A DNA stretch of 64,000 nucleotides, taken from Liopterus haemorrhoidalis (Eukaryota; Arthropoda; Insecta; Coleoptera; Dytiscidae). Location: positions 26,144,306-26,208,305 of the forward strand of contig OZ020616.1 of NCBI GenBank assembly GCA_963971575.1. The letters run 5' to 3'. Each line of letters begins with the position of its first letter. Position 1 is the first letter of the stretch. The position numbers and the translations under genes are program-made. This document shows positions 2,297 to 62,454 of this stretch, one piece after another. The notes under the pieces were generated by a model, which saw nothing but the letters and a program-made list of their open reading frames with translations, ran no database searches and was not told the DNA's origin.

Positions 2297-2395
2297 TGCT
2301 CATCCTTAATTAATCCTTAACACAAAAAACTATACGATAGCAACCAAATTAAATAAATAAAAAAAATTTAAAAAAGAAAGGAAATTTATTAATTA

Positions 2396-6800: not shown

Positions 6801-7728
6801 ATGCCAAAGATCGAAATATGCTAGGAAAAAGCCATATGTACCATTAATGGTCACGGAAACGCCAAGCAAACCTTTTCAAGTAGTTCACATAGACGTTTTT
6901 ACGTTTGACGCAAAAAATTATTTAACAGTTGTAGACGCTTTCAGCAAATTTGCACAAGCTTATCAAATTTCTGGAAAAACCGCCATACATATCTCGAACG
7001 CATTAATAAAATACTTCACCTCATTTGGCATACCCCAAAATTTTATAGTAGATAAAGGCAAGGAATTTGACAATGTAACAGTCAAAGAATTGTTAAAGAC
7101 CCACAATATTAATACCCATTTCACTACTAGCGGACACCATGAATCGAACTCGGTAGTAGAGAGATTTCATTCTACCATAATCGAACACTTAAGAATATTG
7201 AAAGAAATTTATCCCCAAACTGACGAAAACCTGATGGACTATGCAATTATCGCTTATAATAATTCTATACATAGTTCCACGAACTTTACACCTTTAGAAC
7301 TAACTTTTGGACACACTGACTCTCGCAACCCTATCGAAATTTTCACACCTGACTCCTTCTTTGCCGAATATGCTCAAAACCATAAAGACAAACTAAAACA
7401 TGTCTATCGCAATGTTAACAACAAATTAAGAACCGGAAAAGAAAAAGTAGTAGAAAAATTAAATACACAAGGTGAAACTAATAAAGAGTTTAAATTAGGT
7501 CAAATCGTTTATAAAAAGAACCCTCAAGGTAGAAATAAAAAATATAGAAAATTTTTAGGTCCATATAAAATTACAAAAATCTTAGAAAGAAACCGTGTCG
7601 AAATTTATAGCGAAAAATCAAAAAATGATAAATCCGAAATAATACATATAAAAGAATTAAGAAAACCCCCCGTTTTCACAGATACCTCATCTGCACCGTC
7701 GCAGCTGAACCAAGATTCCACGAACTAA
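3802..7728 (+). CDS. pol: Errantivirus Pol: protease, reverse transcriptase, RNase H, integrase
   Basis: Intact ~1308-codon frame, translated as a Gag-Pol fusion after a -1 shift, so no ATG start is expected (the first ATG, 3931, lies inside the protease). Domains in order: aspartic protease with LIDTGST at ~3901; reverse transcriptase with the YLDD active site at 5170-5181; RNase H with TTDAS (Asp at 5617) and YTDHRPLTWL; then a variable acidic linker. Integrase follows, with an HHCC zinc finger near 6676-6815 and catalytic D, D, E at 6892, 7051 and 7159 (35 residues between the last two), and a C-terminal FLGPYKI (GPY/F) module near 7555. All catalytic residues are present. The enzymes copy the RNA into DNA and insert it. 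The frame ends 46 bases after the env splice acceptor. Confidence 0.95.
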   Translation, partial: SHGSTQNQPNVIQLQALTHSLPFIHIPKINARFLIDTGSTKCLMNSELAYKFYANFIFKEDFNIQSAHNISYHDEVVEIPIFNIFNVDQTHKFYLFEFSPKFDGLIGIDLLKRLNATANISSKLLETPYSKISCTFNSDDKNVEKSNSKIYSITVLPRTQQVVRLPVNLDNGTGILDYKNLGDGVDTPKAVVNVINNFAITTITNVNDQPVNLDFSEPFKIEPLINVNFVEKMETEDILTKEHDDKLKQNLKNLRLDHCNREEKEAIRKLCFEYRDIFYCEGIPLTFSNQIRHQIKLKDDTPIFTKSYRFPEVHKQEVKSQMSKLLEQGIIQESVSPWSSPIWIVPKKFDASGKRKWRLVIDYRKLNEKTIDDKYPLPNITDILDKLGKANYFTTIDLASGFHQIEVDPNDIQKTAFSTNEGHYEFTRMPFGLKNAPSTFQRVMNNVLRGVNSCLVYLDDVIIFSTSLQEHLATMRSIFERLKSGNFKVQLDKTEFLQKTVQYLGHIITPDGIKPNPDKINSIKNFPIPTTQKEIKSFLGLLGYYRRFIPDFAKITRPMTKCLKKNAKVLHDNDFVNCFKICKDVLINEPILQYPDFEKPFILTTDASNYAIGSVLSQGNVPNDKPIAYASRTLNDSETRYSTIEKELLAIVWACKHFRPYLYGRKFTIYTDHRPLTWLFSLKEPNSKLVRWRLRLEEFDYTILYKKGKHNLVADSLSRIQINALENESVINNPGDVDQDVLDFLRNLAENIPPPSIYENPEPSTSTGKKNPKFKILENRLIRPADPPTHKLIANRDIANNEETDTADEFIDITETSETDTASEQEQTLTASTQHSTYNETTNDGIPILDEIITNKIHQILVFTSPYPKLQVTNDKYENCKIISVKIPETNNDKLIVEFIKNYTDPKNTYYIYFQKDKLYQNFCRVYLQNFSEKGTKLIRCLKQVNTVSDPEEQILLMKHHHEGKTNHREIVETLEHLRKNYYWKNMKNSISNFINSCEICQRSKYARKKPYVPLMVTETPSKPFQVVHIDVFTFDAKNYLTVVDAFSKFAQAYQISGKTAIHISNALIKYFTSFGIPQNFIVDKGKEFDNVTVKELLKTHNINTHFTTSGHHESNSVVERFHSTIIEHLRILKEIYPQTDENLMDYAIIAYNNSIHSSTNFTPLELTFGHTDSRNPIEIFTPDSFFAEYAQNHKDKLKHVYRNVNNKLRTGKEKVVEKLNTQGETNKEFKLGQIVYKKNPQGRNKKYRKFLGPYKITKILERNRVEIYSEKSKNDKSEIIHIKELRKPPVFTDTSSAPSQLNQDSTN

Positions 7729-9416
7729 ATAGCAACCCCGGATTACTTCCAATAAAACTCGGAAAAGCATATAACAAAATTAATTTTTGGAGCTATGTAC
7801 AAGTATATGACATTTCTAAATTAATATCTGAATTTTCAACATTACAAAATTCTTTTGAAAAAATTAAGACTTCTATTCAAAATGCAAAGCACAATGACTA
7901 TGAAAAAGAATTTCAAAATTCCTATAGAATCATTGAAATACTCCAGAATAAAATTGAAACCCAATTGACGAATTTAAATCCATTTCACGAAATTAGACCC
8001 AAAAGAGCACTCATAGATGGTCTCGGATCAATTATTAAATCCATTACTGGAAACCTCGACCATAAAGATGCGGAAAGGTACGATAAAGCCATCGATGTTC
8101 TAAAGAAAAATCAAGAAACAATTAAAACCACTATTGAAGATCAAATCACGCTACTACAAACTACTATAAAAAATTTCCAAGAAAACTCAAAAATTTTAAG
8201 TCATAATCAAGAAATTCTAACTTCTAGAATTCTGCAATTAGAAAAGGTTATTCAGATTACGCACGTAACAAAAGTCGATAATTCTCTATACTTCTTGTTA
8301 GAAATGGTAATTTCCCAAATTGCTAGCTCTTTACAAATAATATACGATAATCTCGAAAAAATAGAAGTGGCAGTCACATTTGCAAAATTAAACGTACTAC
8401 ATGACTCTATCATAGACCTGAAATTATTCCTGACAGAAATTAATAAAACGACAAAAGACTTGACGAAATGTAAATTTCCTTTCGAACCAAATTTGAATAA
8501 TATAAAATTATTGGAAAAAATTACTGAAGTTAAAAGTTACAGCAAAGGAAACGAAATAATTTTTATCATGGAAATCCCTATCGTAGAGTTGAGAAATTTT
8601 GACTATTACCGATTATATCCATTACCTACACCAACCGATATACCACATTCATTCAAGGTCATTATACCCAATTCCAAATTCATAATTTCCAATGAGCAGC
8701 ATTACGCATACTTAGAAGATAACTGCCAAGAAATCCAGCCAAGAAATTTCCTTTGTAATGAAGTACATCTGACGAAAACTAGAGTTCATAAAATGCCCTG
8801 TGAACTTCAACTATTAAGATATTTGAACGACACAAACGCCTGCTTACAGCTACCAGTTACCGTAGAAGAAATAGAAATTAGTAAAATCGACAGGAATAAA
8901 TGGATCATCACTACCCCTAACAGCGTAGTAGCCACGCAAAAGTGCGAGGAAAATGAAGAAAATGTTCCCTTAAATGGAAGTTACTTAATAGAACTTTATA
9001 ATAATAATTGTGAAGTGCATGTTGGAGACTTTCTACTAAAAACCGTTAAAGACTCTGGACACAAATTTAAAGAAATTAAATTACCGCAAATAAAAGTTAA
9101 AAGTGAAATATTAAATCAAACTCCTATAAAATCTGGGACACTTAAATTAAAATCAATTAAAATGGACGGACTAACACTAATACATAACCATCTTACTGAT
9201 CAAAATCTAAAATTAAAAGAAATTAATAATGTCCCTATCTATTACGACAGAATCGATATATATACGATAGTCATCTACATTTTAATTGGGATCTCCATCA
9301 TCATCGGTGCATATCGATATCACTTAATAAAGAAGAAGGCATCCACCTGCACCGACTCCAATGAAGGAACATCAGCCGATCCAGCAGCTCAAGAAATTGA
9401 TCGAACTCTGTGGTAA
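7682..9416 (+). CDS. env: Errantivirus Env, second coding exon (baculovirus F-like fusion protein)
   Basis: Single-pass envelope glycoprotein of the class I, baculovirus F-like type found in errantiviruses. The frame has no ATG at its 5' end and overlaps the last 47 bases of pol. The expected start is the spliced leader exon ending at 2290, which supplies the first part of a hydrophobic signal peptide. A furin-type site RPKR is at 7995-8006, directly followed by a Gly/Ile-rich fusion-peptide-like segment (ALIDGLGSIIKSITG). A long alpha-helical, Leu/Ile/Gln-rich region follows, then a cysteine-containing ectodomain. A transmembrane segment (about 25 hydrophobic residues) lies near 9245-9325, with a short basic cytoplasmic tail. 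The frame is unbroken to the stop. A decayed homologue is scattered across 26.3-29.9 kb. Infectivity cannot be inferred. Confidence 0.9.
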
Positions 9417-26575: not shown

Positions 26576-27960
<1,385 letters not shown>

Positions 27961-28098: not shown

Positions 28099-29315
28099 GA
28101 TTCACGGTAAGTTCATCGAAAATCAATTCATCGAAAATCAATTCATCGAATGATCAATTCATCGAATGATCAATTCATCGAAAAAAAATATTTTGTAAAT
28201 ATTTGAGAGGAATGCCGAGAGGATCGGAAAGCCAAAAAAGCAGTGGTCAATAAAAGTTGACAGACTACACTTATTAAATAACTATCATACTTGGTCTATT
28301 AATAATTTTTAAATTTTCCATTCAGAAAATACGCCAGGTAAAAGATACCTGTTGGATTATTTTGAAATCGAACAGAACTCCTTAGATCAGAAAACACCGG
28401 TTAATGGGATCATAAATGTACTTAATACACCCATTCTTAAAGGATTATAAAAATGGTATTTCCCCATCTGTTAAGTCTTAAGGGTTTTGTGTTATGTACA
28501 TAGTTTTACTATTCATATTTATTATACCACACATGATTTGTTCAATGTACGGTGATTCTAAACAGGTGGCATTGTTATGTTAGTGTGAGTTTGTTTTGTC
28601 ATTAAACTAGATGATGGGTAGCTCGCTTCGCTCGACTTCTTCTAACCAAACCCTTACTAACCTAACCTAAGATAGTGTTCTGACATTAAACTAGAAGATG
28701 GGTAGCTCGCTTCGCTCGGCTTCTTCTAACAAAACCCTTACTTACCTAACCTAACCTAAAATAGTGCTTTGTCCTTAAACTAGAAGATGGTTAACTTGCT
28801 CCGCTCGATTTTAGACTTTTACTAACTAAACCTAACCTAATTACCTTGTTTTTAGGCGCATAGTACTTTATTTCCCCCCATATTAGCCCAATTAAAATGC
28901 GTATCATTGTGTATGAATTTATAAAAATTATTTGCGTGCAATTGCCCATAACCTGTCTTATTAAACCTTAAAAACAAAACATTTATTTCTTTTATTATAT
29001 AAGTTTTCTTATTATATTTCTTTATTTATATTCACACACTATGTCACTTTATTTACCTTTTTTTAAACCATATAAAAAATTTTACGCAATTATTTCTTAG
29101 TCTGTCTACTTTTATTGACCACTGCTCTTTTGACTTTCCGATCCCCTCGGCATTCCTCTCAAATATTTACAAAATATTTTTTTTTTTCGATGAATTGATC
29201 ATTCGATGAATTGATCTTTCGATGAATTGATTTTCGATGAATTGATTTTCGATAAATTGATTTTCGATGAATTGATTTTCGATGAATTGATTTTCGATGA
29301 ACTCGTCGGTTACCA
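28099..29315. mobile_element. Foldback-like element, copy 1
   Basis: 1217 bp. The left end is GATTCACGGTAAGTTCATCG, followed by tandem 'aaaatcaattcatcg' units. The right end is the same in reverse (units of 'cgatgaattgatttt', ending aactcgtcggttacc). Just inside, the arms share inverted blocks (gtaaatatttgagaggaatg; its complement is near 29155). The middle carries three ~85-bp repeats with the gctcgcttcgctcg motif, each followed by aacctaacctaa. No coding sequence. It interrupts an env remnant; a clean target duplication is not visible here. Confidence 0.8.
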
Positions 29316-39210: not shown

Positions 39211-40190
39211 TGCGACGCTCCTACCTCGATACCCTTTGTACTCTCAGGCAGGTAGTGGAGTTCGGTCGCAAATGACGCTTACCTGTACTCGTTCAGTTAT
39301 GTTATTCGGGCGCCAACCGATTGCTCGGATTTCTCAGTGGAGCGAGGTCCGGGTTCCAAGATAACACACACACTCTCTCTCTCATAGGCACACACCAAAG
39401 AAAACAGCAGATACTTTTAACCCGGATTTATTTTATCTCAACCGTATATTACAACAAAAAAACACAAAAATAATATAATAATACATTCAATGGTGGGATT
39501 CTCCGTCCCTGGTCCTCTGTTGGGGCGTCCTTCGTGGGCGACGGGGACTCTGCAAAGAAACAAACCCCCCTCTCTCTCGCGACACTCTATCCGCGTGAGA
39601 AGCGATACGTCTGGCGAAGCTGGAACGGACGCAACTTTGCCAGCGCGCAACGCTTCCCAATGCCTGTCTAAACCCCCACCCTTGGGCTAGAGCAAGATCT
39701 CCCCCACCCTGCTCTGTCCGTGGTATGAAGTATTGCACCCGGCCTTAGCTGGAACGGACGCAAGCCTTAGCAGGGCGCAACACTTCAAGACCAACACAAA
39801 TGCTCCCCTTTTCCCCTCAAAAAGAAAACAACAATCCCTCGCGGCACTCGAGCAGCGTGGGAAGTGATACGTCTGGCGAAGCTGGAACAGACACAAACTC
39901 TGCCAGTACGCAACACTTCCAAATGCTAGTCCACTATTGTCCGTGATGAAGGAAGCGGGGTGTCTGTCGATGCTGGAACAGACACAGCAGAGCCAGAACA
40001 CAACACTTCAAAAATCACAAAACAATATAGACAAAATACAATCGACAAAAATCAGATAATAAATTAACCACAAAATTTACTTACTCGTATATTCACTCGG
40101 ATATTGCAGAGGTTCACTACCTCTGCTCGAAGATGCCTTATTTGAAATTCCCCTGTGAGGTCCTATACATGAAAATACCTATGTGCCACC

Positions 40191-40440
40191 GAGAGGCAAG
40201 CATGTTCGGTCAGCGCCATCTGTTAGTGTAAAAGACAACTGCTGCGGGAGGTCGAGGGAGGTCGATGTCTCCACTGGTCCTTACGCTAGCGAGAGGTAAG
40301 GATGTTCGGTCAGCGCCATCTGTTAGTGTAAAAGACAACTGCTGCGTGAAGTCGAGGGAGGTCGATGTCTCCACTGGTCCTTACGCTAGCGAGAGGTAAG
40401 GATGTTCGGTCAGCGCCATCTGTTAGGTGTAAAAGGCAAC
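40191..40440. repeat. Threefold 100-bp repeat in the 3' LTR
   Basis: cagcgccatctgttag occurs at 40211, 40311 and 40411, exactly 100 bases apart, each in a unit starting gagaggcaagcatgttcggt (or a close variant). The same triplet lies in the other LTR at 43994, 44094 and 44194. The motif's reverse complement, ctaacagatggcgctg, resembles the CTCF consensus. Confidence 0.85.
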
Positions 40441-40589
40441 TACCTCCTCACAGGAAAATTTCAAAAAAAACAAAAAAGAAATTCAGGAATTTAATTTAAA
40501 AAAAATTTTATGGCCGATTAAAATTTTAATTTTATTAAAATAATTTGGGATAGGCCCCAACCTATCCCAAAAACAAAAAAAAATATTTC

Positions 40590-40675
40590 GACCCTCCAAG
40601 GGGTGTCGAACCCGGGTCCCCCGAACGTCCATCAAATCTGCCAAGCATTAAGACCGCTCGACCATGCTCGCCTGG
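40590..40675 (-). other. tRNA-like module inside the 3' LTR
   Basis: On the minus strand, an A-box-like tggtcgagcgg (40664-40654) and a B-box-like gggttcgacac (40613-40603) are about 50 bases apart, as in a tRNA with a long variable arm (Ser/Leu type). Acceptor and T-stem pairing is incomplete, so it is probably a tRNA-derived or SINE-derived piece rather than a working tRNA. The twin lies at 44373-44458. Confidence 0.6.
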
Positions 40676-40762
40676 TTAAAAAATTTCAATTTTGGGACGA
40701 TCACTTGTGCATCATCACACTCTCCTCTTACTTCGCCCAAAAATGAAAAACAAAAACAGCGG

Positions 40763-42880
40763 CTATCGAGGATCCGGGGGTATCGTGATCCATGTCCCGG
40801 CCGCCAACCGCAAACGACAGCGCTTCTTCGGGTTCCAACCCTTGGGTCGCAACCGAGTGAGCAGCATCACTGCTCTCGTCGTGCGGCTGTCCCTGGGCCG
40901 GCCGGGATTATTCCGGTCCTCCTTCCTCTGGAGTGACGCGGGGGAAAACGGGGCAGCTCTCGGAGTTGGGGGTGGCGTCCTTTGACCTGGCGCCGGAGCC
41001 CGTCGTCGCGGCGGAGTCGATGGGGGCTCGTCCAACGCTCTCATCGGGTAGTCCGGCATCTCGTCTTGGGGGTGGGCGATGTAGCGCGTCCTGGTCACAC
41101 CTAGAGTCATCATAAAGTTACCTTTATGCCCTGGATGTGCATCTGCTTCAACGCCCTTCCTTGCGGGCTCGTGAACTCCACGACTTGTGGCGATTGTAGT
41201 CGCGTGACGGTCCATGGTCCCGAATACCTTGGGGCCATTTCCGCGGCAAACCCTTTTCCTCCTGGGGAGAGGGGTCGTTTGCAACGCCTCACAGCTTCGC
41301 CGACGCGAGGTTTCCAACCTCTGGAACTCGCTCCCGGCCGCTGGCCTGACTGTTAAGCAAGACGTCTCCTTGCTTGCTCCGAGCTTACTTTTTCCATGTG
41401 AAAAGTCGAGCTTCAGGCGCCAGGCCCTAATGGCGTCCATACCTAGTATCATTGATACTGGTAGCCCTGGTAAGCAGAACCATTCGATCCGTCGGCAGAT
41501 TCCTTCGATCACGGCTCTCATTTCCCAGGGGCCCTGGGCTGTCACCACCTCACCGTTCGGTAGCAGGACCTCTAATCCCTGCTCCTGTCTCGCCGTGGCT
41601 CCATTCTTTATGCAGTGTTCCAGGAGCGTCTCGTCGACGTACGACCGGCAGGATCCGGTGTCCACCAAAGCGTGGACGGCCCGTCCTTTTATCTCGACCT
41701 CCTGGAATACTCGGTCGTCCCTCCGTGTGGACTGGAGGGATATCACTTGCGTCGCTCCGCTCCCTGGTTGCGAGCCCCTGCTTCCGTTTTCCGGGTGAGC
41801 AAGGCGGCAGTTGCAGGCGTCGGACGTGAGGCCGTCGTGGCCACACCGGTGACAGAACTGCCTCAGGGAGTTCGGACATAGCCGGGCGCTATGCCCCCGT
41901 TGACTGCATCTCCAACAGTCTCGTTTGGGGTCGTAATCCCTGTTTACTGGTGCTTGCTCGCGGGGTTGGCGGGCCACCTCCTCGGTAGCGGTCAACGAGG
42001 CCGGTTTCTTCAGGACCTGGCGGTTCAGGTCTCTCTGCAGCTTCTCATATTCCTCGATTGACTGCAGGAGCCCGTTTAGGTCGGAGAAATCCCTCCTCCG
42101 TATATATTGCCTGTATTCCGGCAGAAGATTATTATACAGCCGATATAGCTGTTGTTCACTGCTTAATTGTCCATGGCGACGCATCAGCGTTTGCAGGTCA
42201 ATGCAGTATTCCCTGCCGCGCTCCCCTTGGCGTTGGAGACGTTTCCCTGCTTCTTCCTCTAGCCGCATCCGATAGTCACTGGGCCAGTAGAACGCCTTAA
42301 AATCCTTCTCAAAATCCGCCCAGGTGTTCCATGAGCCCCGACTGTTCCGGCTCCACAACAATACCGTACCCTTCAAGAGTTCGGATACAGCCACCAGGAG
42401 TTGAGAATCCTCGAGCCCGTATGACTCCTTCAGCTCGTGAAGGCGTTCTAAAAATGCGATGGGGTCGGCCCGACCGTCGAACGAGACGTTCCACTTGCGG
42501 ACGACCTCACATCCGTGCCTACTGTTCCGGCTCAGGTCCAGCACATGGTGTCCTGCCGTAGAGTCCTGCACGCCCGATGTCGAATTACGCGGGGCGGACA
42601 GTACCGGTGGTCTCTCTCGTTTCGGGGTGCTCGCCTGGACAGCGGTGTGTTGGTCGGCCACTTGTATTGCCTGCCTGGCAAATTTGGCCAGCCAAGCCCT
42701 CTGTTCTTCAGGGGTGCCGGAGGTATCCTGGCCGTATTTTCTCAGTTCAGCCTCCACTTCCTGTGGACTGAACCGGTTCACCCATTCGGGTGTTGAGACG
42801 ACTTCGTTGTCCATCATGCTGGACTCGTCCCCCATGTACCACTTTCCACTCGCGGTTTCGGGCACACCTGTCTCTGGCAT
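40763..42880 (-). CDS. gag: Gag-protease polyprotein of the LTR element, truncated Pol
   Basis: A single long frame; the start is taken at the ATG 42880-42878, because the frame further upstream is primer-site and poly-A sequence. Gag: a capsid-type domain (FDGRADPIAFLERLHELKES, LLKGTVLLWSRNSRGSWNTW) and a matrix-like start. Two zinc knuckles follow: CWRCSQRGHSARLCP and CHRCGHDGLTSDAC. Aspartic protease: ALVDTGSCRSYVDE and later MILGMDAIRAW (a G-M-D flap-end motif). After about nucleotide 41400 the frame no longer resembles Pol; it crosses a deletion junction and reads the remaining integrase end out of frame, giving a Pro/Arg-rich tail. The product could form particles and mature them, but cannot reverse-transcribe or integrate alone. 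Confidence 0.85.
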   Translation of the reverse strand: MPETGVPETASGKWYMGDESSMMDNEVVSTPEWVNRFSPQEVEAELRKYGQDTSGTPEEQRAWLAKFARQAIQVADQHTAVQASTPKRERPPVLSAPRNSTSGVQDSTAGHHVLDLSRNSRHGCEVVRKWNVSFDGRADPIAFLERLHELKESYGLEDSQLLVAVSELLKGTVLLWSRNSRGSWNTWADFEKDFKAFYWPSDYRMRLEEEAGKRLQRQGERGREYCIDLQTLMRRHGQLSSEQQLYRLYNNLLPEYRQYIRRRDFSDLNGLLQSIEEYEKLQRDLNRQVLKKPASLTATEEVARQPREQAPVNRDYDPKRDCWRCSQRGHSARLCPNSLRQFCHRCGHDGLTSDACNCRLAHPENGSRGSQPGSGATQVISLQSTRRDDRVFQEVEIKGRAVHALVDTGSCRSYVDETLLEHCIKNGATARQEQGLEVLLPNGEVVTAQGPWEMRAVIEGICRRIEWFCLPGLPVSMILGMDAIRAWRLKLDFSHGKSKLGASKETSCLTVRPAAGSEFQRLETSRRRSCEALQTTPLPRRKRVCRGNGPKVFGTMDRHATTIATSRGVHEPARKGVEADAHPGHKGNFMMTLGVTRTRYIAHPQDEMPDYPMRALDEPPSTPPRRRAPAPGQRTPPPTPRAAPFSPASLQRKEDRNNPGRPRDSRTTRAVMLLTRLRPKGWNPKKRCRLRLAAGTWITIPPDPR
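41110..41355 (-). pseudogene. Integrase C-terminal remnant
   Basis: In another frame than the Gag ORF, the minus strand encodes WKPRVGEAV, then KGFAAEMAPRYSGPWTVTRL and a Val-Glu-Phe stretch, ending at a stop near 41110. This is the SH3-like (GPY/F-type) end of gypsy integrases. Its survival marks the right border of a large internal deletion that removed reverse transcriptase, RNase H and the integrase core. Confidence 0.75.
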
Positions 42881-42970
42881 CACTCTTGATGCCCAAGTTT
42901 CTGTTTCTTTGGTGTGCGGTCGTGTGTGTGTGTGTGTTAACCTCGCTTCCTTATAAAGTTTTTTTTTTTT

Positions 42971-42990
42971 GAGTCCCTGCTCGGGCGCCA
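42971..42990 (-). other. Primer-binding site, tRNA-Lys-like
   Basis: On the minus strand TGGCGCCCGAGCAGGGACTC lies three bases after the 5' LTR. It matches the complement of the tRNA-Lys(UUU) 3' end used by many retroelements, apart from G for A at position 11. Confidence 0.88.
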
Positions 42991-42993
42991 AAT

Positions 42994-44502
42994 TGCGACG
43001 CTCCTACCTCGATACCCTTTGTACTCTCAGGCAGGTAGTGGAGTTCGGTCGCAAATGACGCTTACCTGTACTCGTTCAGTTATGTTATTCGGGCGCCAAC
43101 CGATTGCTCGGATTTCTCAGTGGAGCGAGGTCCGGGTTCCAAGATAACACACACACTCTCTCTCTCATAGGCACACACCAAAGAAAACAGCAGATACTTT
43201 TAACCCGGATTTATTTTATCTCAACCGTATATTACAACAAAAAAACACAAAAATAATATAATAATACATTCAATGGTGGGATTCTCCGTCCCTGGTCCTC
43301 TGTTGGGGCGTCCTTCGTGGGCGACGGGGACTCTGCAAAGAAACAAACCCCCCTCTCTCTCGCGACACTCTATCCGCGTGAGAAGCGATACGTCTGGCGA
43401 AGCTGGAACGGACGCAACTTTGCCAGCGCGCAACGCTTCCCAATGCCTGTCTAAACCCCCACCCTTGGGCTAGAGCAAGATCTCCCCCACCCTGCTCTGT
43501 CCGTGGTATGAAGTATTGCACCCGGCCTTAGCTGGAACGGACGCAAGCCTTAGCAGGGCGCAACACTTCAAGACCAACACAAATGCTCCCCTTTTCCCCT
43601 CAAAAAGAAAACAACAATCCCTCGCGGCACTCGAGCAGCGTGGGAAGTGATACGTCTGGCGAAGCTGGAACAGACACAAACTCTGCCAGTACGCAACACT
43701 TCCAAATGCTAGTCCACTATTGTCCGTGATGAAGGAAGCGGGGTGTCTGTCGATGCTGGAACAGACACAGCAGAGCCAGAACACAACACTTCAAAAATCA
43801 CAAAACAATATAGACAAAATACAATCGACAAAAATCAGATAATAAATTAACCACAAAATTTACTTACTCGTATATTCACTCGGATATTGCAGAGGTTCAC
43901 TACCTCTGCTCGAAGATGCCTTATTTGAAATTCCCCTGTGAGGTCCTATACATGAAAATACCTATGTGCCACCGAGAGGCAAGCATGTTCGGTCAGCGCC
44001 ATCTGTTAGTGTAAAAGACAACTGCTGCGGGAGGTCGAGGGAGGTCGATGTCTCCACTGGTCCTTACGCTAGCGAGAGGTAAGGATGTTCGGTCAGCGCC
44101 ATCTGTTAGTGTAAAAGACAACTGCTGCGTGAAGTCGAGGGAGGTCGATGTCTCCACTGGTCCTTACGCTAGCGAGAGGTAAGGATGTTCGGTCAGCGCC
44201 ATCTGTTAGGTGTAAAAGGCAACTACCTCCTCACAGGAAAATTTCAAAAAAAACAAAAAAGAAATTCAGGAATTTAATTTAAAAAAAATTTTATGGCCGA
44301 TTAAAATTTTAATTTTATTAAAATAATTTGGGATAGGCCCCAACCTATCCCAAAAACAAAAAAAAATATTTCGACCCTCCAAGGGGTGTCGAACCCGGGT
44401 CCCCCGAACGTCCATCAAATCTGCCAAGCATTAAGACCGCTCGACTATGCTCGCCTGGTTAAAAAATTTCAATTTTGGGACGATCACTTGTGCATCATCA
44501 CA
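42994..44502 (-). repeat. 5' LTR of the gag-protease element
   Basis: 1509 bp, unusually long. Read on the minus strand it contains, in order: a tRNA-like module; a threefold ~100-bp repeat with cagatggcgctg motifs; four degenerate repeats of a 'gaagctggaacggacgcaa' theme; and the regulatory/R end near 43200, where 'aataaa'-containing sequence occurs. It ends GTCGCA. Confidence 0.93.
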
Positions 44503-47426: not shown

Positions 47427-47435
47427 GTGTCATCT

Positions 47436-49290
47436 GGCTCCGTGAAGTTAGCAGTCCACTGAAAGCACTAACGAAAATTCGTCGGCCATCCGTTAGTGCT
47501 TCGTTAGTGCCTGTTAGTGCTTCATAAAAAATCGTAGCCACCCTAACCGTTTTCGAAAAAAAAGCAATTCAAAATGGACTGCTAACTTCACGCTTCGTTG
47601 GAAGCACTAACGAAAATTCGTCGGCCATCCGTTAGTGCCTCGTTAGTGCCTGTTAGTGCTTCATTAAAATTTGTAGCCACCCTAACCATTTTTGAGATAT
47701 TGAGCATTCAAAAAAATAAGCGTGAAGTTAGCAGTCCACTGAAAGCACTAACGAAAATTCGTCGGCCATCCGTTAGTGCCTCGTTAGTGCCTGTTAGTGC
47801 TTCATTAAAATTTGTAGCCACCCTAACCGTTATTGAGAAATTGAGCTTTCAAAAAATCGACCGTGAAGTTAGCAGTCCACTGAAAGCACTAACGAAAATT
47901 CGTCGGCCATTCGTTAGTGCCTCGTTAGTGCCTGTTAGTGCTTCATTAAAATTTGTAGCCACCCTAACCGTTTTTGAGATATTGAGCAATCAAAAAATTA
48001 AGCGTGAAGTTAGCAGTCCACTGAAAGCACTAACGAAAATTCGTCGGCCATCCGTTAGTGCTTCGTTAGTGCCTGTAAGTGCTTCATTAAAATTTGTAGC
48101 CACCCTAACCGTTTTTGAGAAATTGAGCTTTCAAAAAATCGACCGTGAAGTTAGCAGTCCACTGAAAGCACTAACGAAAATTCGTCGGCCGTCCGTTAGT
48201 GCCTCGTTAGTGCCTGTTAGTGCTTCATTAAAATTTGTAACCACCCTAACCGTTTTTGAGATATTGAGCATTCAAAAAAATAAGCGTGAAGTTAGCAGTC
48301 CACTGAAAGCACTAACGAAAATTCGTCGGCCATCCGTTAGTGCTTCGTTAGTGCCTGTTAGTGCTTCATTAAAATTTGTAGCAACCCTAACCGTTTTTGA
48401 GAAATTGAGCATTCAAAAAATCGACCGTGAAGTTAGCAGTCCACTGAAAGCACTAACGAAAATTCGTCGGCCATCCGTTAATGCCTCGTTAGTGCCTGTT
48501 AGTGCTTCATTAAAATTTGTAGCCACCCTAACCGTTTTTGAGATATTGAGCATTCAAAGAAATAAGCGTGAAGTTAGCAGTCCACTGAAAGCACTAACGA
48601 AAATTCGTCGGCCATCCGTTAGTGCCTCGTTAGTGCCTGTTAGTGCTTCATTAAAATTTGAAGCCACCCTAACTGTTTTTGAGAAATTGAGCATTAAAAA
48701 AAATTCACGTGCAGTTTGCAGGTCATGAAAAGCACTAATGAAAATTCATCGGCCAACCATTAATGCCTCGGTAGTGCCTGTTTGTGCTTCATTAAAATCG
48801 AAATCCACCCTAATCGTTTTTGAGAAATTGAGCATTCAAAAAAATTAACGTGTAGTTTGCAGGTCATGAAAAGCACTAAAGAAAATTCATCGGCCAACCA
48901 TTAGTGACTCGGTAGTACCTGTTTGTGCTTCATTAAAATCGAAATCCACCCTAAACGTTTTAGAGAAATTGAGCATTCAAAAAAATTAACGTGTAGTTTG
49001 CAGGTCATGAAAAGCACAAATGAAAATTCATCAGCCAACCGTTAGTGCCTCGGTAGTGCCTGTGTATGCTTCATTAAAAATCGGAATCCACCCTAAGTGT
49101 TTTTGAGAAACTGAGCATTCAAAAAAATAAGCATTAAGTTAGCAGGACATAGAAAGCACTAACGAAAATTCGTCGGCCATCCGTTAGTGCCTCGTTAGTA
49201 CCTGTTAGTGCTTCCTTAAAATTGGAATCCACCCAAGCGTTTTTTAGAAATTGAGCATTCAAAAAAATAAGCGTGAAGTTAGATGGTGAT
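47436..49290 (+). repeat. 141-bp tandem array, left arm (~13 units)
   Basis: The unit runs from gtgaagttagcagtccactg through aaagcactaacgaaaattcg and ccgttagtgc(c/t)tcgttagt to gccaccctaaccgtttttga. Because 141 is a multiple of three, units stay open in one frame (a 376-codon repeat ORF at 47598-48728) without evidence of being a gene. The outer nine units are nearly identical. The inner four (48710-49270) are diverged and carry different spacers such as gtagtttgcaggtcatgaaa. Confidence 0.95.
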
Positions 49291-49338
49291 TGAAATACTA
49301 TATTTTTCTCTAGATGGGGGTAGATTTATCTAAGATAT

Positions 49339-49555
49339 ATTAATTTATTTATTTATTTATTTATTTTACATTGGCCTATTTCTGCAACGAGGCTAATCGC
49401 CGATGCCAGGGGGCGAACTCCTACACCTGGATGAGGGGTGAATGATTGTGAAATGAGAGTAATGTATACATTATTCTCGCCCGAATATCACCAACGGAGA
49501 ATCGAACTACCGACCGCACAATCCAGACTGTTTTCACCAGTCCAAACTGCACGAT
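49339..49555 (-). mobile_element. tRNA-derived SINE in the left arm (head deleted)
   Basis: Inverted copy of the SINE at 53291-53534. The A-rich tail ((aaat)n as attt at 49343-49367) and TSD remnant tctaagatat at 49329-49338 are present. The tRNA-like 5' head is missing after 'ccaaactgcacgat'. Confidence 0.8.
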
Positions 49556-50145
49556 ATTTTAAATCCCAAGATATTTGAGAATAATTTTTACTACAATTTT
49601 ACGCCTTCACAAATATTGTATTTTCAACCCTATCTAATTAATGTAGGGCGAGCTTGCAAATTAACTTCGATGACAGAATAAGCACCCAGAATTATCTGAT
49701 AAGTTGAAAAAGGTATGAAAACAACTAATTAATTATATCACAAGTAAAATTAGAACAAGTCAATGTAATCTGTGTAAAAAAGCGTCTAAATCGTCTAATG
49801 TAAATAAGCAATTTTTAATAAGTGTTGGACTAAATATGACTGACGATTTAAGTATGATAAATGATAAGCAAAATATCTAGTGTAATAAAACACAATATTG
49901 AAGGAAAGTTTCGATGTTAGTATATAATATAATCAATATAATAATATACAAATAACAAATCATCAAAACACAATTTAAAATTTACTTCAACTAAACAGAA
50001 CTTTTGAACCAGCAGTATTGTTAATCCCGGCAGCCCGCTCTACCACCTAACGATCAAACTGACTCATCAGATTAATTTATTTACTGTGATCTTCTTTCTG
50101 TGATTACTTCTGACCTATAAACGATAGGTACATGAGTCAAAGGGA

Positions 50146-50724
50146 GGGTCAAAAGAGGGGGGGTCACGAATATCAATGTATATCTATCTTTGTTATACTT
50201 ATATGCTACAGCATACGAACACAATAATTTTGGGTATAATAATTTTTAAATATATTTGTGACGAACAAACTAAACGAATATTATCATCGACTATCATCAA
50301 CTGCATTGCAAACTAAAATATATAGCACCAAAGACGCGTAGTATAATACCTTATCTATCTCAAATGTGTGCGGCTTGCTTTATATTTATTAAAAATATAA
50401 AATATAAAAAAATATAAATAAACTGCAACCACTTTATATTTACCTATTAAATCTTTGGCCATACTTACTTTCATTGACAGCAAAAACCCCTCTATTTTTC
50501 AATTCAATGGTCTACCTGCACTTTTCTCCTTCGACCGTTAGGTTTGTGTGCCGCGTCTTAAACGCAAGAAACAAAATACATAGTAAAAATAATTGGACAT
50601 CTTCTTCTTTATATATATATAAAAGAGGAAAATTGTCTGTTTGCTTGTTTGTTTGTTCGCTATACATTCCTAGGCCGTGTAACCGATTTAAACCAAATTT
50701 TGCACAGTTACTATTTAGAACCCT
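50146..50724. other. Loop of the palindrome, left part
   Basis: Unique AT-rich DNA with no gene. At 50610-50720 is the phrase 'ggaaaattgtctgtttgctt' followed by 'aaccgatttaaaccaaattt'. That phrase is typical of dispersed insect repeats and continues at 51655 beyond the inserted element. Confidence 0.5.
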
Positions 50725-50732
50725 GCGGAACT

Positions 50733-51646
50733 GATTCTAGGTTAATTTATCGAAAATCAATTTATCGAATACAAATTTATCGATAGCAAGTTTATCAAAA
50801 GCAAAGTTATCGAAAATCAATTTATCGAATGCTCAATTTATCGAATGCTCAATTTATCGAATGGCATGTTTATCGAAAATGCTTAGTAATATTATATTAT
50901 TACATAAAAACAAATTTTCTTATTAATATAAATTTTCGGTATAACTAGGGAATAGGTCATACCACTAGCGTCATACCATACATGATTTGTTCAATTTACG
51001 GTAATTCTAAACAGGTGGCATTATTATGTTAGTGTGAGTTTGTTTTGTCATTAAACTAGAAGATGGGTAGCTCGCTTCGCTCGACTTCTTCTAACCAAAC
51101 CCTTACTAACCTAACCTAACCTAAGATAGTGTTTTGTCATTAAACTAGAAGATGGGTAGCTCGCTTCGCTCGGCTTCTTCTAACCAAACCCTTACTAACC
51201 TAACCTAACCTAAGATAGTGCTTTGTCATTAAACTAAAAGATGAGAAGCTCGTTTCGCTCGGCTTCTTCTAACCAAACCCTTACTAACCTAACCTAAGAT
51301 AGTGTTTTGTCACTAAACTAGAAGATGGTAATCTCTCTTTGCTCGGCTTCTTCTAACCAAACCATTACTAACCTAACCTAAGATAGTGTTTTTATATGTC
51401 ACTTTATTTACCGTCACAATAATAAATTACAATGTAAACTAAAATTTCTTTCATTATTAATTCCTACCGAAATAATTCAACAATCAATTTTCGATAAACG
51501 TGCCATTCGATAAATTGAGCATTCGATAAACTAGCTTTCGATAAATTGATTTTTGATAAATTGATTTTCGATAAATTTGCTTTCGATAAATTGATTTTCA
51601 AAATTTGCTTTCGATAAATTGATTTTCGATAAACTCGCTGGTTCCC
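50733..51646. mobile_element. Foldback-like element, copy 2 (in the loop)
   Basis: 914 bp. Flanked by GCGGAACT at 50725-50732 and 51647-51654. The ends are tandem 'tttatcgaaaatcaa' units and their inverted counterparts 'gataaattgattttc'. The middle has four ~82-bp repeats (about 51050-51390) with gctcgcttcgctcg and aacctaacctaa. The interior matches copy 1 closely (catgatttgttcaat...aaacaggtggcatt, middle omitted) but the end repeats use TTATCG instead of TCATCG, so it is a subfamily. Confidence 0.88.
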
Positions 51647-51654
51647 GCGGAACT

Positions 51655-51999
51655 AATGGTGCAAAAATTAATCGGTTTTTAAATGATGTACATGTTTTTA
51701 GGGCCTACGGACGGAAAAAAGTCGGAAAATATCTTTGGTGCGGAACATTAAAATAGTTACGACGGCTAAACTGTAAGAGATATATCGAAAATATATATAT
51801 CGGACTTTTCAGGTTTAATATTACTACAAAAATCTCCGGGAGAGCATATATCGCAGGTCAATAGATAACTCACAATTATGATTTATAATTTTATTTTCGA
51901 CGAAAATTATAACGCTGTTTGCTGTGGAATATCATCGTTACCTTTAAAGATTTACAAAGAAAAAATACTTTAATGGCAAGGGCATTTACTAACGAATAA
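51655..51999. other. Loop of the palindrome, right part
   Basis: It continues the dispersed-repeat phrase interrupted by copy 2 (aactaatggtgcaaaaatta, then cctacggacggaaaaaagtc). No gene. Confidence 0.5.
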
Positions 52000-52187
52000 A
52001 AAGCCCTTTGACCCATGTACCTATCGTTTATAGGTCAGAAGTAATCACAGAAAGAAGATCATAGTAAATAAATTAATCTGATGAGTCAGTTTGATCGTTA
52101 GGTGGTAGAGCGGGGTGCCGGATTAACAATACTGCTGGTTCAAAAGTTCTGCTCTAGTTGAAGTAAATTTTAAATTGTGTTTTGATG

Positions 52188-52969
52188 GATTCACAGTAAG
52201 TTCATCGAAAATCAATTCATCGAAAATCAATTCATCGAAAATCAATTCATCGAAAATCAATTCATCGAAAATCAATTCATCGAATGATCAATTCATCGAA
52301 TCGTCAATTCATCGAAAAAAATATATTTTGTAAATATTTGAGAAGAATGCCGAGGGGATCGGAAAGCCAAAAAAAGCAGTGGTCAATAAAAGTTGACAGA
52401 CTACACTTATTAAATTACTATCATACTTGGTCTATTAATAATTTTTAAATTTCATTAAGCTAGATGATGGGTAGCTCGCTTCGCTCGGCTTCTTCTAACA
52501 AACCCTTACTAACCTAACCTAACCTAATTACCTTGTTTTTAGATGCATAGTACTTTATTTTCCCCCATATTAGCCCAATTAAAATGCGTATCATTGTGTA
52601 TGAATTCATAAAAATTATTTGCGTGCAATTGCCCATAACCTGTCTTATTAAACCTTAAAAACAAAACATTTATTTGTTTTATCATATAAGTTTTTTTATT
52701 ATATTTCTTTATTTATATTCAAATACTATGTCACTTTATTTAAATTTTTTTAAACCATATAAAAATTTTATGCAATTATTTCTTTGTCTGTCTACTTTTA
52801 TTGACCACTGTTTTTTTGACTTTCCGATCCCCTCGGCATTCCTCTCAAATATTTACAAAATATTTTTTTTTAGATGAATTGACGATTCGATGAATTGATC
52901 ATTCGATGAATTGATTTTAGATGAATTGATTTTCGATGAAATGATTTTCGATGAACTCGTCTGTTACTG
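52188..52969. mobile_element. Foldback-like element, copy 3 (in the right arm)
   Basis: 782 bp. Flanked by TTTTGATG at 52180-52187 and 52970-52977. The left arm of the giant palindrome (about 49962-49982, inverted) carries this site uninterrupted with one TTTTGATG, proving the boundaries. The ends are five or more aaaatcaattcatcg units. The body is a deleted version of copy 1 with a single gctcgcttcgctcg/aacctaacctaa unit (52447-52530). Confidence 0.94.
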
Positions 52970-53290
52970 TTTTGATGATTTGTTATTTGTATATTATTAT
53001 ATTGATTTTAAATACTAACATCGAAACTTTCCTTCAATATTGTGTTTTATTACACTCGATCTTTTGCTTATCATTTCTCATACCTAAATCGTCAGTGATA
53101 TAATTAATTAGTTGTTTTCATACCTTTTTCAACTTATCAGATAATTCTGGGTGCTTATTCTGTCATCGAAGTTAATTTGCAAGTTCGCCCTACATTAATT
53201 AGATAGGGTTGAAAAACAATGATATGTGTGAAGGCGTAAAATTGCAGTAAAAATTATTCTTAATTATCTTGGGATTTAACATATCTTAGA

Positions 53291-53534
53291 TTCAAACGGA
53301 GTGGTCGAGCGCATTAAGTCGTACAGTTTGGACTGGTGAAAACAGTCTGGATTATGCGATTGGTAGTTCGATTCTCCGTTGGTGATATTATTCGGGCGAG
53401 AATAATATGTATACATTACTCTCATTTCACAATCATTCACCCCTCATCCAGGTGTAGGAGTTCGCCCCTGGCATTGGCGATTAGCCTGGTTGCAGAAATA
53501 GGCCGATGTAAAATAAATAAATAAATAAATTAAT
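53291..53534 (+). mobile_element. tRNA-derived SINE in the right arm
   Basis: 244 bp. The head is a tRNA-like sequence with an A-box-like gtggtcgagcgca near 53302 and B-box-like tagttcgattctcc near 53364, with a long variable arm (Ser/Leu type). A body and an (AAAT)n tail follow. A 10-bp target duplication, atatcttaga, is at 53281-53290 and 53535-53544. Confidence 0.85.
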
Positions 53535-53589
53535 ATATCTTAGATAAATCTACCCCCATCTATAGAAAAATATAGTATTTCAATCACCA

Positions 53590-55297
53590 TCTAACTTCAC
53601 GCATATTTTTTTGAAAGCTCAATTTCTAAAAAACGGGTTGGGTGGATTCCAATTTTAATGAAGCACTAACAAGTACTAACGATGCACTAACGGATGGCCA
53701 ACGAATTTTCGTTAGTGCTTTCTATGTCCTGCTAACTTTATGCTTTTTTTTTTGAATGCTCAATTTCTCAAAAACTCTTAGGGTGGATTCCGATTTTAAT
53801 GAAGCACAAACAGGCACTACCAAGGCACTAACGGTTGGCCGATGAATTTTCATTAGTGCTTTTCCTGACCTGCAAACTACACTTTAATTTTTTTGAATGC
53901 TCAATTTCTCAAAAACGGTTAGGGTGGATTTCGATTTTAATGAAGCACAAACAGGCACTACCGATGCACTAACGGTTGGCCGATGAATTTTCATTAGTGC
54001 TTTTCATGACCTGCAAACTGCACGTTAATTTTTTTTTAATGCTCAATTTCTCAAAAACGGTTAGGGTGGATTCAAATTTTAATGAAGCACTAACAGGCAC
54101 TAACAAAGCACTAACGGACGGCCAACGAATTCTCGTTAGTGCTTTTCATGACCTGCTAACTTCACACTTATTTTTTTGAATGCTCAATTTCTCAAAAACG
54201 GTTAGGGTGGCTACAAATTTTAATGAAGCACTAACAGGCACTAACAAGGCACTAACGTATGGCCGACGAATTTTCGTTAGTGCTTTCAGTGGACTGCTAA
54301 CTTCACGCTTATTTTTTTGAATGCTCAATATCTCAAAAACGGTTAGGGTGGCTACAAATTTTAATGAAGCACTAACAGGCACTAACGAGGCACTAACGGA
54401 TGGCCGACGAATTTTCGTTAGTGCTTTCAGTGGACTGCTAACTTCACGCTTATTTTTTTGAAAGCTCAATTCCTCAAAAACGGTTAGGGTGGCTACAAAT
54501 TTTAATGAAGCACTAACAGGCACTAACGAGGCACTAACGGATGGCTGACGAATTATCGTTAGTGCTTTCAGTGGACTGCTAACTTCACGCTTATTTTTTT
54601 GAATGCTCAATATCTCAAAAACGGTTAGGGTGGCTACAAATTTTAATGAAGCACTAACAGGCACTAACGAGGCACTAACGGATGGCCGACGAATTTTCGT
54701 TAGTGCTTTCAGTGGACTGCTAACTTCACGGTCGATTTTTTGAAAGCTCAATTTCTCAAAAACGGTTAGGGTGGCTACAAATTTTAATGAAGCACTAACA
54801 GGCACTAACGAGGCACTAACGGATGGCCGACGAATTTTCGTTAGTGCTTTCAGTGGACTGCTAACTTCACGGTCGATTTTTTGAAAGCTCAATTTCTCAA
54901 AAACGGTTAGGGTGGCTACAAATTTTAATGAAGCACTAACAGACACTAACGAGGCACTAACGGATGGCCGACGAATTTTCGTTAGTGCTTTCAGTGGACT
55001 GCTAACTTCACGCTTATTTTTTTGAATGCTCAATATCTCAAAAACGGTTAGGGTGGCTACAAATTTTAATGAAGCACTAACAGGCACTAACGAGGCACTA
55101 ACGGATGGCTGACGAATTTTCGTTAGTGCTTCCAACGAAGCGTGAAGTTAGCAGTCCATTTTGAATTGCTTTTTTTTCGAAAACGTTTAGGGTGGCTACG
55201 ATTTTTTATGAAGCACTAACAGGCACTAACGAAGCACTAACGGATGGTCGACGAATTTTCGTTAGTGCTTCCAGTGGACTGCTAACTTCACGGAGCC
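53590..55297 (-). repeat. 141-bp tandem array, right arm (~12 units)
   Basis: Inverted counterpart of the left array, with the same outer-uniform and inner-diverged gradient and one unit fewer. The terminal unit (55140-55297) differs from the inner ones in the same way as the left terminal unit (cgaaaaaaaagcaattcaaa spacer). The arms are therefore homologous as ordered arrays, not just as repeat families. Confidence 0.95.
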
Positions 55298-55306
55298 GTG
55301 TCATCT

Positions 55307-61079: not shown

Positions 61080-62454
61080 CAGTGAATTTATTTTTTAATT
61101 CAACATGTACTATGTCATTACCATGGATACAGTTTTTGACAGCAATATAAATCGTGTTCATTTCCATTTGCAACATAGACAATTAGTGTGTATACTTTTG
61201 CTCATTGCTGATTTAAAAATTAATCAACATGTATACAGATGAAGAAAAAATAATGATGGTAACTTGGTATAACTCCCAAATGAGTTTAAGAGAAGTTTCT
61301 GCTGTATTTAGTGCAACTTAATCTCTACAATATCAAGACTAGTTAATAAATTTCATCGCGAAGGCTGTCTTAAGTGAAAACATAATAAAAAAAGAACAAC
61401 ATCCCACGTGCTTACAGAAGAGAAGCAGTTGGAAATATTATTACAAGTGGAAGAAAACAATCAAAATACTTTAAGATTGATTGCACAAACCATTGGTGTC
61501 AGTATTGGATCTGTTTTTAACTTCTTAAAAAAAAAAGAAAAGTTTCGATCATACAAATTTCAAAATCATCAAGAATTTTTAGAAAGGGACGCAGCAGTAC
61601 GTATGGATTTTTGTTTTGAAATGTTTGAAAAAATTAATTCCGACCCAACAATGCTTCAAAGAATTTTATTTACTGACGAAGCAACGTTTACTCTAAATGG
61701 TGAAGTGCACAGACAAAATTTAAGGTACTGGAGTCGAGAAAATTTTATTTGTTTCATTCCTCCCGAACTCAAAGGCCGCAAAAATTAAATGTTTGGGCAG
61801 GGATAATAGGAACCAATATTATAGGGTCTTTTTTTATTGACGGTAACCTTAATGCCGCAAAATATCTAGCCCTTTTGAAAAACCAAATATTACCTGCATT
61901 GCGAAAACTGAATATTAATGGACAAGTATGGATTCAACATGATGGCGCACAAGTCCATTATTCTAGAATAGTTAAAGAATATTTACATAGAACTTTCCCA
62001 AATAGCTGGATTGGAAGAGGAGGGTCGATGAATTGGCCAACGAGATCTCCGGATTTGGCACCCAATGATTTCTTTTATTGGGGATATTTAAAGGTCAAAG
62101 TATATAATGGAGAACTTAGGGATGTTGCTGAACTGCAAAACAAAATTGTTCAAGCATCCAACAGTACACCTCAAGAGCAATTGCTGAATATTTTGAATCA
62201 TTTTTATGATCGCTTAACATTTTGTATGCAAGTAAACGGAGAAACTTTTGAACATTTATTATAAGTTTTTATTAGTTATTTATCTATTATTATTATTATT
62301 TTTTATTTGTATTTTCAATAAAATATTTTGATTTTGCTAGTAAATATGGTTTTTTCTATGTTGCAAATGAAAATGAACACGATTTATATTGCTGTCAAAA
62401 ACTGTAACCATGGTAATGACATAGTACATGTTGCATTAAAAACTAAATTCACTG
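61080..62454 (+). mobile_element. DD41D mariner-like element, inactive
   Basis: 1375 bp. TA flanks both ends (61078-61079, 62455-62456). Inverted repeats of about 100 bases start CAGTGAATTTA and contain gtactatgtcattaccatgg and gacagcaatataaatcgtgt. They are nearly identical apart from a few substitutions. A broken transposase fills the middle. The long terminal repeats are a notable trait of this copy. Confidence 0.93.
61229..62264 (+). pseudogene. DD41D mariner-like transposase, frameshifted
   Basis: Cut-and-paste transposase that would bind the element's ends. It starts MYTDEEKIMMVTWYNSQ (DUF4817-type helix-turn-helix). It is broken near 61319 (frame change), at a TGA near 61375 and at a frame change near 61760. 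The catalytic triad survives: FTDEATFTL (first Asp), IQHDGAQVHY (second) and SPDLAPNDFFYWG (third, the Asp after Asn). Forty-one residues separate the last two, hence DD41D. The last segment (61749-62264) is intact to its stop. Confidence 0.9.

What the first reader, a model, noticed from the sequence alone, without database searches (positions are those of the whole stretch)
47436..55297. 7.86-kb palindromic transposon whose arms are 141-bp tandem arrays, with exact 9-bp target duplication
The two ends are exact inverted copies. The element is bracketed by GTGTCATCT on both sides. The arms begin with 12-13 units of a 141-bp repeat in opposite orientation and continue as homologous unique sequence. 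Drosophila FB elements share the design (tandem-repeat arms, 9-bp duplications), but this unit length and sequence are not ones I recognise. It has no visible transposase, so a partner encoding one should exist elsewhere.
Basis: partly seen in the sequence, partly recalled or inferred. Interest (0 to 1): 0.88.

Follow-up and report, generated by a model that had tools for sequence, protein, structure and literature searches.

The report
Foldback transposon with tandem-repeat arms
This is a jumping gene without its own engine, probably from an insect, whose two mirror-image ends are built from a 141-letter repeated unit; it looks like a new family of a known kind, with an unusually clear trace that one arm was copied onto the other.

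Summary
Window 47436-55297 (7,862 bp) has inverted arms of 2.7 and 3.3 kb and exact flanking 9-bp copies of GTGTCATCT. Each arm has a self-complementary 157-bp cap, a 141-bp tandem array (13.1 left and 12.1 right periods) and a shared non-tandem domain. The tips match exactly for 26 bp and at 280 of 285 overall. No transposase was recognised in the 1.86-kb middle.

Best reading: a non-autonomous foldback DNA transposon, most likely moved by a Mutator-type transposase encoded elsewhere. A SINE-like insertion, with its own 14-bp target duplication in the right arm, sits at the same point in both arms. One arm was therefore copied to the other after that insertion; five non-tandem pieces are now 95.7-97.7% alike. 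The arrays differ in unit order: the left alternates as a dimer, the right does not. Two smaller foldback elements with 15-bp repeats lie inside.

Closest published design seen is Tetris of Drosophila virilis; five pieces of this sequence were not found in print. Other copies and the transposase partner could not be sought: all 14 own-genome requests did not complete. Verdict: new member of a known kind.

The parts
47427..47435 (.). left 9-bp target site duplication GTGTCATCT
   Evidence: exact; only two occurrences in the window, both strands searched
55298..55306 (.). right 9-bp target site duplication GTGTCATCT
   Evidence: exact; only two occurrences in the window, both strands searched
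47436..47592 (+). left terminal cap: GGCTC plus a segment closed by an 18-bp inverted repeat (CGTGAAGTTAGCAGTCCA ... TGGACTGCTAACTTCACG)
   Evidence: hairpin z-score -5.07, 0 of 200 shuffles as stable (150 of the 157 bases folded)
55141..55297 (-). right terminal cap, same structure inverted
   Evidence: same 18-bp inverted repeat at the same offsets; not folded separately
47441..49282 (+). left 141-bp tandem array; units 1-7 alternate between two unit types
   Evidence: Tandem Repeats Finder 13.1 copies; unit sequences; among units 2-7 neighbours differ at 8-10 positions, next-but-one at 3-5
53591..55292 (-). right 141-bp tandem array, not alternating
   Evidence: Tandem Repeats Finder 12.1 copies
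49272..50144 (+). left inner arm domain (non-tandem)
   Evidence: inverted alignment to the right arm; five pieces 95.7-97.7% identical, gap columns left out
52004..53601 (-). right inner arm domain (non-tandem), interrupted by nested element N2
49344..49552 (-). SINE-like insertion, left-arm copy; 35 bp at its head junction are missing relative to the right arm (31 of the insertion, 4 of the target duplication)
53290..53529 (+). SINE-like insertion, right-arm copy with AAAT-repeat tail, flanked by TTAACATATCTTAG (53276) and TTAATATATCTTAG (53530), 13 of 14 identical; B-box-like GTTCGATTC at 53366
   Evidence: no Rfam match up to E 5
50145..52003 (.). middle domain, not palindromic, no transposase recognised
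50733..51646 (.). nested foldback element N1: inverted arms of 15-bp repeats (TTTATCG type), 8-bp duplication GCGGAACT at 50725 and 51647
52188..52967 (.). nested foldback element N2: inverted arms of 15-bp repeats (TTCATCG type), 10-bp duplication TGTTTTGATG at 52178 and 52968; absent from the left arm, whose mirror site at 49961 carries the 10-bp target once

Best explanation
A non-autonomous foldback DNA transposon that was inserted as one unit by a transposase making 9-bp staggered cuts, most likely of the Mutator (MULE) superfamily, supplied from another locus. Shown: the tips, the duplicated target, the tandem arms, and that no transposase is recognisable here. Inferred: the 141-bp arrays multiply binding sites for that transposase, as reported for Galileo; the arms are kept mirror-like by occasional long copying of one arm onto the other, probably when a break in or beside the element is repaired from the other arm. 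The SINE-like insertion present at the same point of both arms marks at least one such copying event. Afterwards N2 entered the right arm only, and the arrays changed unit order separately.
For: Exact 9-bp duplication abutting exact 26-bp inverted tips. Colinear inverted arms over tandem and non-tandem parts. SINE-like insertion with a 14-bp target duplication (13 of 14 identical) in the right arm and the same insertion at the mirror position in the left. Non-tandem arm pieces, gap columns left out: 98 of 101, SINE piece 198 of 206, then 174 of 179, 111 of 116, 169 of 173; tips 280 of 285. The unoccupied N2 target lies in the left arm at the mirror site. Among the 32 stop-to-stop frames of 45 aa or more listed for 49290-53580 the longest is 108 aa; 10 of the 32 were scanned and none reached a Pfam cut-off. 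Published foldbacks with 8-10-bp duplications encode, or are assigned to, Mutator transposases: 14 Aedes families (ten of the twelve with long arms have subterminal tandem repeats), Tm1, Tetris by inference of its authors. Repeats in Galileo arms hold further transposase binding sites. Arm-from-arm repair copying is proposed for Galileo.
Against: No second copy with the same tips was found: 0 stretches in viral contigs and 0 in bacterial and archaeal genome contigs for a 21-base piece of the unit, but neither collection is meant to hold insect genomes. No transposase was linked to these tips, so the superfamily rests on duplication length and design alone. The foldback design has arisen in more than one superfamily (Galileo is of the P superfamily). 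Same-position units 2-7 of the two arrays are no more alike (mean 6.0 differences) than any two units between arms (5.9), so the outer arrays do not record the arm-copying event; only the non-tandem parts do. Inner array units differ more between arms (4-15 differences at best-matching pairs) than the non-tandem parts.
Confidence: 0.72

Rival explanations
1. A foldback element of the same general kind, but moved by a P-superfamily transposase (Galileo-like) or another non-Mutator one; the foldback design is convergent.
For: Galileo has long arms, about 210-bp tandem repeats in one subfamily and internal sequence recruited into the arms. No transposase is available here to decide.
Against: Galileo is described with 7-bp duplications, here 9 bp. 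Aedes Mutator families have 8-9 bp and Tm1 most commonly 9 bp.
Confidence: 0.15
2. Not a transposon: an inverted duplication of a short satellite array with its flank, produced by replication error, with the 9-bp match by chance.
For: Tandem arrays and inverted duplications do arise this way, and only one copy is known.
Against: The exact 9-bp match falls precisely at the outer ends of the inverted tips, chance about 1.3e-5, and about 0.75 kb of each flank showed no match to the other flank or elsewhere in the window at E 1e-4.
Confidence: 0.04
3. Assembly artefact: an array contig joined to its own reverse complement.
For: Long inverted repeats are prone to misassembly; raw reads were not available.
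Against: The arms differ at 2.3-4.3% of aligned non-tandem bases, in unit number and order, by gaps of 35 and 99 bp and by a 780-bp nested insertion, and the duplication is exact.
Confidence: 0.02
4. The palindrome itself was formed once, after the SINE-like insertion, from a one-armed precursor, instead of copying between two existing arms. (This differs from the best explanation only in that step, so its odds overlap with it.)
For: The five non-tandem arm pieces show similar divergence (95.7-97.7%), as expected of a single origin.
Against: Needs a mobile one-armed precursor; inverted tips are normally required for transposition of such elements (established knowledge, recalled).
Confidence: 0.25

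Closest known systems
Tetris (Drosophila virilis foldback transposon, PMC4079207, passages seen)
   Same: Long inverted arms in domains with a tandem array of about 220-bp units, middle domain of variable composition without apparent coding capacity, 8-10-bp duplications, apparently non-autonomous
Muta1 and Muta5 (Aedes aegypti Mutator-like elements, PMC5225508, passages seen)
   Same: 8-9-bp duplications, tandem repeats next to the tip, palindromic terminal motif in Muta1, non-autonomous derivatives, those of Muta1 with varied middles
   Different: Repeats of 12 and 15 bp and arms of 145 and 151 bp; encode a transposase. The nested elements N1-N3 resemble these more than the main element does
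Tm1 (Meloidogyne Mutator/Foldback family, PMC3169594, passages seen)
   Same: Composite arms with a variable number of tandem repeats differing between the two ends, mostly 9-bp duplications, non-autonomous forms
   Different: Repeats of 13-15 bp, asymmetric terminal motifs, a transposase-encoding copy known
Galileo (Drosophila, P superfamily, PMC3573991 and PMC3688188, passages seen)
   Same: Long arms with about 210-bp tandem repeats in one subfamily, arm extension by recruiting inner sequence, binding sites in the repeats
   Different: 7-bp duplications, P-type transposase, arms up to about 1.26 kb in D. mojavensis
FB of Drosophila melanogaster (details recalled, no call)
   Same: Inverted arms of tandem repeats, 9-bp duplications
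   Different: Much shorter basic repeats (recalled)

Membership tests
foldback transposons (structural class) | long inverted arms that contain tandem repeats | tested here: met
foldback transposons (structural class) | target site duplication at both ends | tested here: met
   9 of 9 bases identical
foldback transposons (structural class) | several copies at different sites with the same tips | not testable with these tools
   own-genome search unanswered in all 14 calls (3, 4, 10, 14, 20, 25, 30, 37, 41, 45, 50, 54, 56, 58); within this window only the two tips of this element
Mutator (MULE) superfamily | target duplication of about 8-11 bp | tested here: met
   9 bp; necessary, not sufficient; published ranges seen are 8-9 and 8-10 bp, 11 is recalled
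Mutator (MULE) superfamily | MULE transposase in the element or in a partner with the same tips | tested here: inconclusive
   none recognised in the element, 10 of 32 frames scanned; partner could not be searched for
P superfamily (Galileo) | 7-8-bp duplication | tested here: not met
   9 bp; Galileo 7 bp, P 8 bp recalled
P superfamily (Galileo) | THAP-domain transposase | tested here: inconclusive
   no transposase recognised in the element, 10 of 32 frames scanned
Tetris family | sequence homology of the final arm portions | not tested
   no Tetris sequence was fetched or compared

The most novel reading that the evidence does not exclude
A foldback family whose arms work as a satellite nursery: a self-complementary cap and a 141-bp array that expands into dimeric higher-order repeats in one arm, with whole arms periodically recopied from one side to the other, foreign insertions included, so that the palindrome grows by annexing whatever lands beside the array.
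Probability: 0.3. Interest if true: 0.5.

Novelty: new member of a known kind. Interest (0 to 1): 0.4.

Why it matters
How foldback elements keep or rebuild long mirror arms is not settled; the proposal made for Galileo is repair of one arm from the other (passage). A SINE-like insertion with its own target duplication, at the same point of both arms, is an insertion-tagged trace of such copying and can be tested by comparing copies. The left array also shows a 141-bp unit organised as a dimeric higher-order repeat, relevant to how transposons seed satellite DNA, as argued for Tetris.

Tried and rejected
Coding array: a frame stays open for 380 aa through the left array and 333 aa through the right. 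The unit is a multiple of three, and 1,213 of 5,000 base-composition shuffles of it have at least one open frame of six. A 188-aa piece (four units) found no relative at E up to 10 among the 7,980 candidates scored. Pfam did list families for these frames at E up to 0.01, six for the left and nine for the right, and a few sums exceed the curated cut-off (IL28A in both, His_kinase in the left, HCV_NS5a_C in the right). In every one of these rows no single stretch passed on its own, so I take them as artefacts of summing weak matches over repeats. Rejected as a gene.

Viral contig matches: a 17-base tip piece gave 5 stretches; compared with six query pieces of the element they showed only an 18-base match in one, L005. 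Taken as chance.

SINE as a tRNA relative: Rfam gave no match up to E 5 in 53240-53560, none at gathering scores in the whole window, and ARAGORN found no tRNA gene. A B-box-like string is present; the A-box pattern that I tried is not. I therefore call it SINE-like, on its target duplication and its AAAT-repeat tail.

Host: not identified. Insect is inferred from a Baculo_F-type envelope frame and from the first named relative of a LINE frame, Callosobruchus analis at 43% identity (416 hits, 120 listed, most unnamed).

Literature: seven searches. Five papers were seen as passages (with 51, 48), none as a whole; the rest as listings. One search (141-bp terms) listed two papers, on Fragaria and on Wolbachia in tsetse flies, neither opened.
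Full report
Observation. The element at 47436-55297 is flanked by GTGTCATCT at 47427-47435 and 55298-55306, the only two occurrences in the 64-kb window on either strand. Inverted alignments cover 1,721 bp at 93.6% identity in register and 2,189 bp at 91.6% one unit out of register. The tandem arrays have period 141, with 13.1 copies on the left and 12.1 on the right. The tips are identical for 26 bp and agree at 280 of 285 positions. The 21-base tip occurs in the window only at these two places with up to three mismatches allowed, and in none of 100 shuffles.

Anatomy of an arm, outside to inside. (i) A 157-bp cap begins GGCTC and is closed by an 18-bp inverted repeat, in both arms. 150 bases of the left cap fold with z -5.07, 0 of 200 shuffles as stable; two ordinary units fold less strongly (z -2.04 and -3.92; 8 and 0 of 200 shuffles as stable). 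(ii) The 141-bp array. Outer units are nearly uniform; inner ones (left 9-12, right 8-11) differ from the outer ones (2-7) by 15-30 positions. In the left arm units 2-7 alternate: neighbours differ at 8-10 positions, next-but-one at 3-5. The right arm has no such alternation: neighbours 1-6, next-but-one 0-7. (iii) A non-tandem domain, 49272-50144 on the left, 52004-53601 on the right.

A shared insertion in both arms. In the right arm 240 bp (53290-53529) ending in an AAAT-repeat tail lie between TTAACATATCTTAG and TTAATATATCTTAG, 13 of 14 bases identical. That is the mark of a SINE-like insertion, although no Rfam family matched it. The left arm has the same insertion at the mirror position; 35 bp at its head junction are missing there, including four bases of the target duplication. 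Two independent insertions at the same base are very unlikely, so one arm, or a tract of it that includes this point, was copied into the other after the insertion. The pieces measured, gap columns left out, are now 95.7-97.7% alike: outside the insertion 98 of 101, insertion 198 of 206, then 174 of 179, 111 of 116 and, innermost, 169 of 173. Against a simple account, inner array units differ more between arms than that (4-15 differences in about 141 at the best-matching pairs), and same-position outer units are no closer than random pairs between arms (6.0 versus 5.9). Array turnover within each arm would explain both, but that is inference.

Nested elements. N1 (50733-51646, 914 bp) and N2 (52188-52967, 780 bp) are smaller foldback elements with inverted arms of 15-bp repeats and duplications of 8 bp (GCGGAACT) and 10 bp (TGTTTTGATG). 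GCGGAACT also occurs at two other places in the window and TGTTTTGATG at one more on the + strand. The only - strand copy of TGTTTTGATG, at 49961, is the mirror site in the left arm, where it stands once: the empty target of N2. N2 therefore entered the right arm after the last copying of that part. N1, N2 and a third copy, N3 (28099-29313), begin GATTC and share inner sequence; no duplication was found for N3. Their design resembles Muta5 of Aedes aegypti, whose arms hold nine copies of a 15-bp repeat (passage).

Coding capacity. Of 32 stop-to-stop frames of 45 aa or more listed for 49290-53580 the longest is 108 aa. Ten of the 32 were scanned against Pfam at E up to 1; four gave one weak match each, none at its curated cut-off. 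The long frames through the arrays are explained by unit length and chance (Tried and rejected).

Mechanism. Shown: two-armed structure, exact 9-bp duplication, no recognisable transposase, one arm-copying event. Inferred: insertion as a unit by a Mutator-type transposase in trans. Fourteen Aedes Mutator families have 8-9-bp duplications, and ten of the twelve with long arms carry subterminal tandem repeats. Of 53 complete Tm1 elements 45 have 8-10-bp duplications, most commonly 9, and the family includes a transposase-encoding form. The authors of Tetris suggest the Mutator superfamily from duplication length and earlier views of foldbacks. That the array multiplies binding sites is by analogy with Galileo, in whose repeats further binding sites were identified. 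That arms are recopied during break repair is the proposal made for Galileo by its authors. Here an insertion with its own duplication tags the copying; the repair step itself is inference.

Comparison and novelty. The general plan is that of Tetris and other foldbacks. Five pieces of the unit and tip were not found in the full text of the library; the two papers that one search listed for 141-bp repeats were not opened. I found no description of a SINE in both arms of a foldback, but the search was narrow (one paper, in which the word foldback was not counted). New member of a known kind; a new family by its sequence, provided that further copies exist.

Limits. Every request to search the host genome was unanswered (14 calls, listed in Tried and rejected), so copy number, other duplications and the partner transposase are unknown. 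The host is not identified; an insect is inferred.

Noticed in passing
28099-29313: Third copy (N3) of the small foldback family with 15-bp repeat arms; inner 84-89-bp repeats shared with N1 and in part with N2; no target duplication found
   Followed up: partly
2393-9416: Three long frames on the + strand: weak Ty3 capsid match (below cut-off), reverse transcriptase/RNase H/integrase, and a Baculo_F-type envelope: an envelope-bearing Ty3/gypsy-type element, described only
   Followed up: no
40190-44224: Two 252-bp stretches with the same consensus, each 2.5 units of 100 bp, bracket a frame on the - strand (40763-43003) with weak gag and protease matches: probably an LTR element with tandem repeats in its ends
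   Followed up: no
27070-27806: (AC) microsatellite of 368 units, 99% matches
   Followed up: no
47586-48728 and 54146-55147: Frames of 380 and 333 aa stay open through the 141-bp arrays, reading inward in both arms; judged chance
   Followed up: yes
52092-52160: Inner arm holds a second stretch with tRNA-promoter-like strings (TGGTAGAGCGG, GGTTCAAAAG; patterns recalled), possibly another SINE remnant shared by both arms; read by eye only
   Followed up: no
61704-62264: 186-aa frame with a weak DDE_3 match (E 0.0017, below the curated cut-off), perhaps a mariner-type transposase remnant
   Followed up: no
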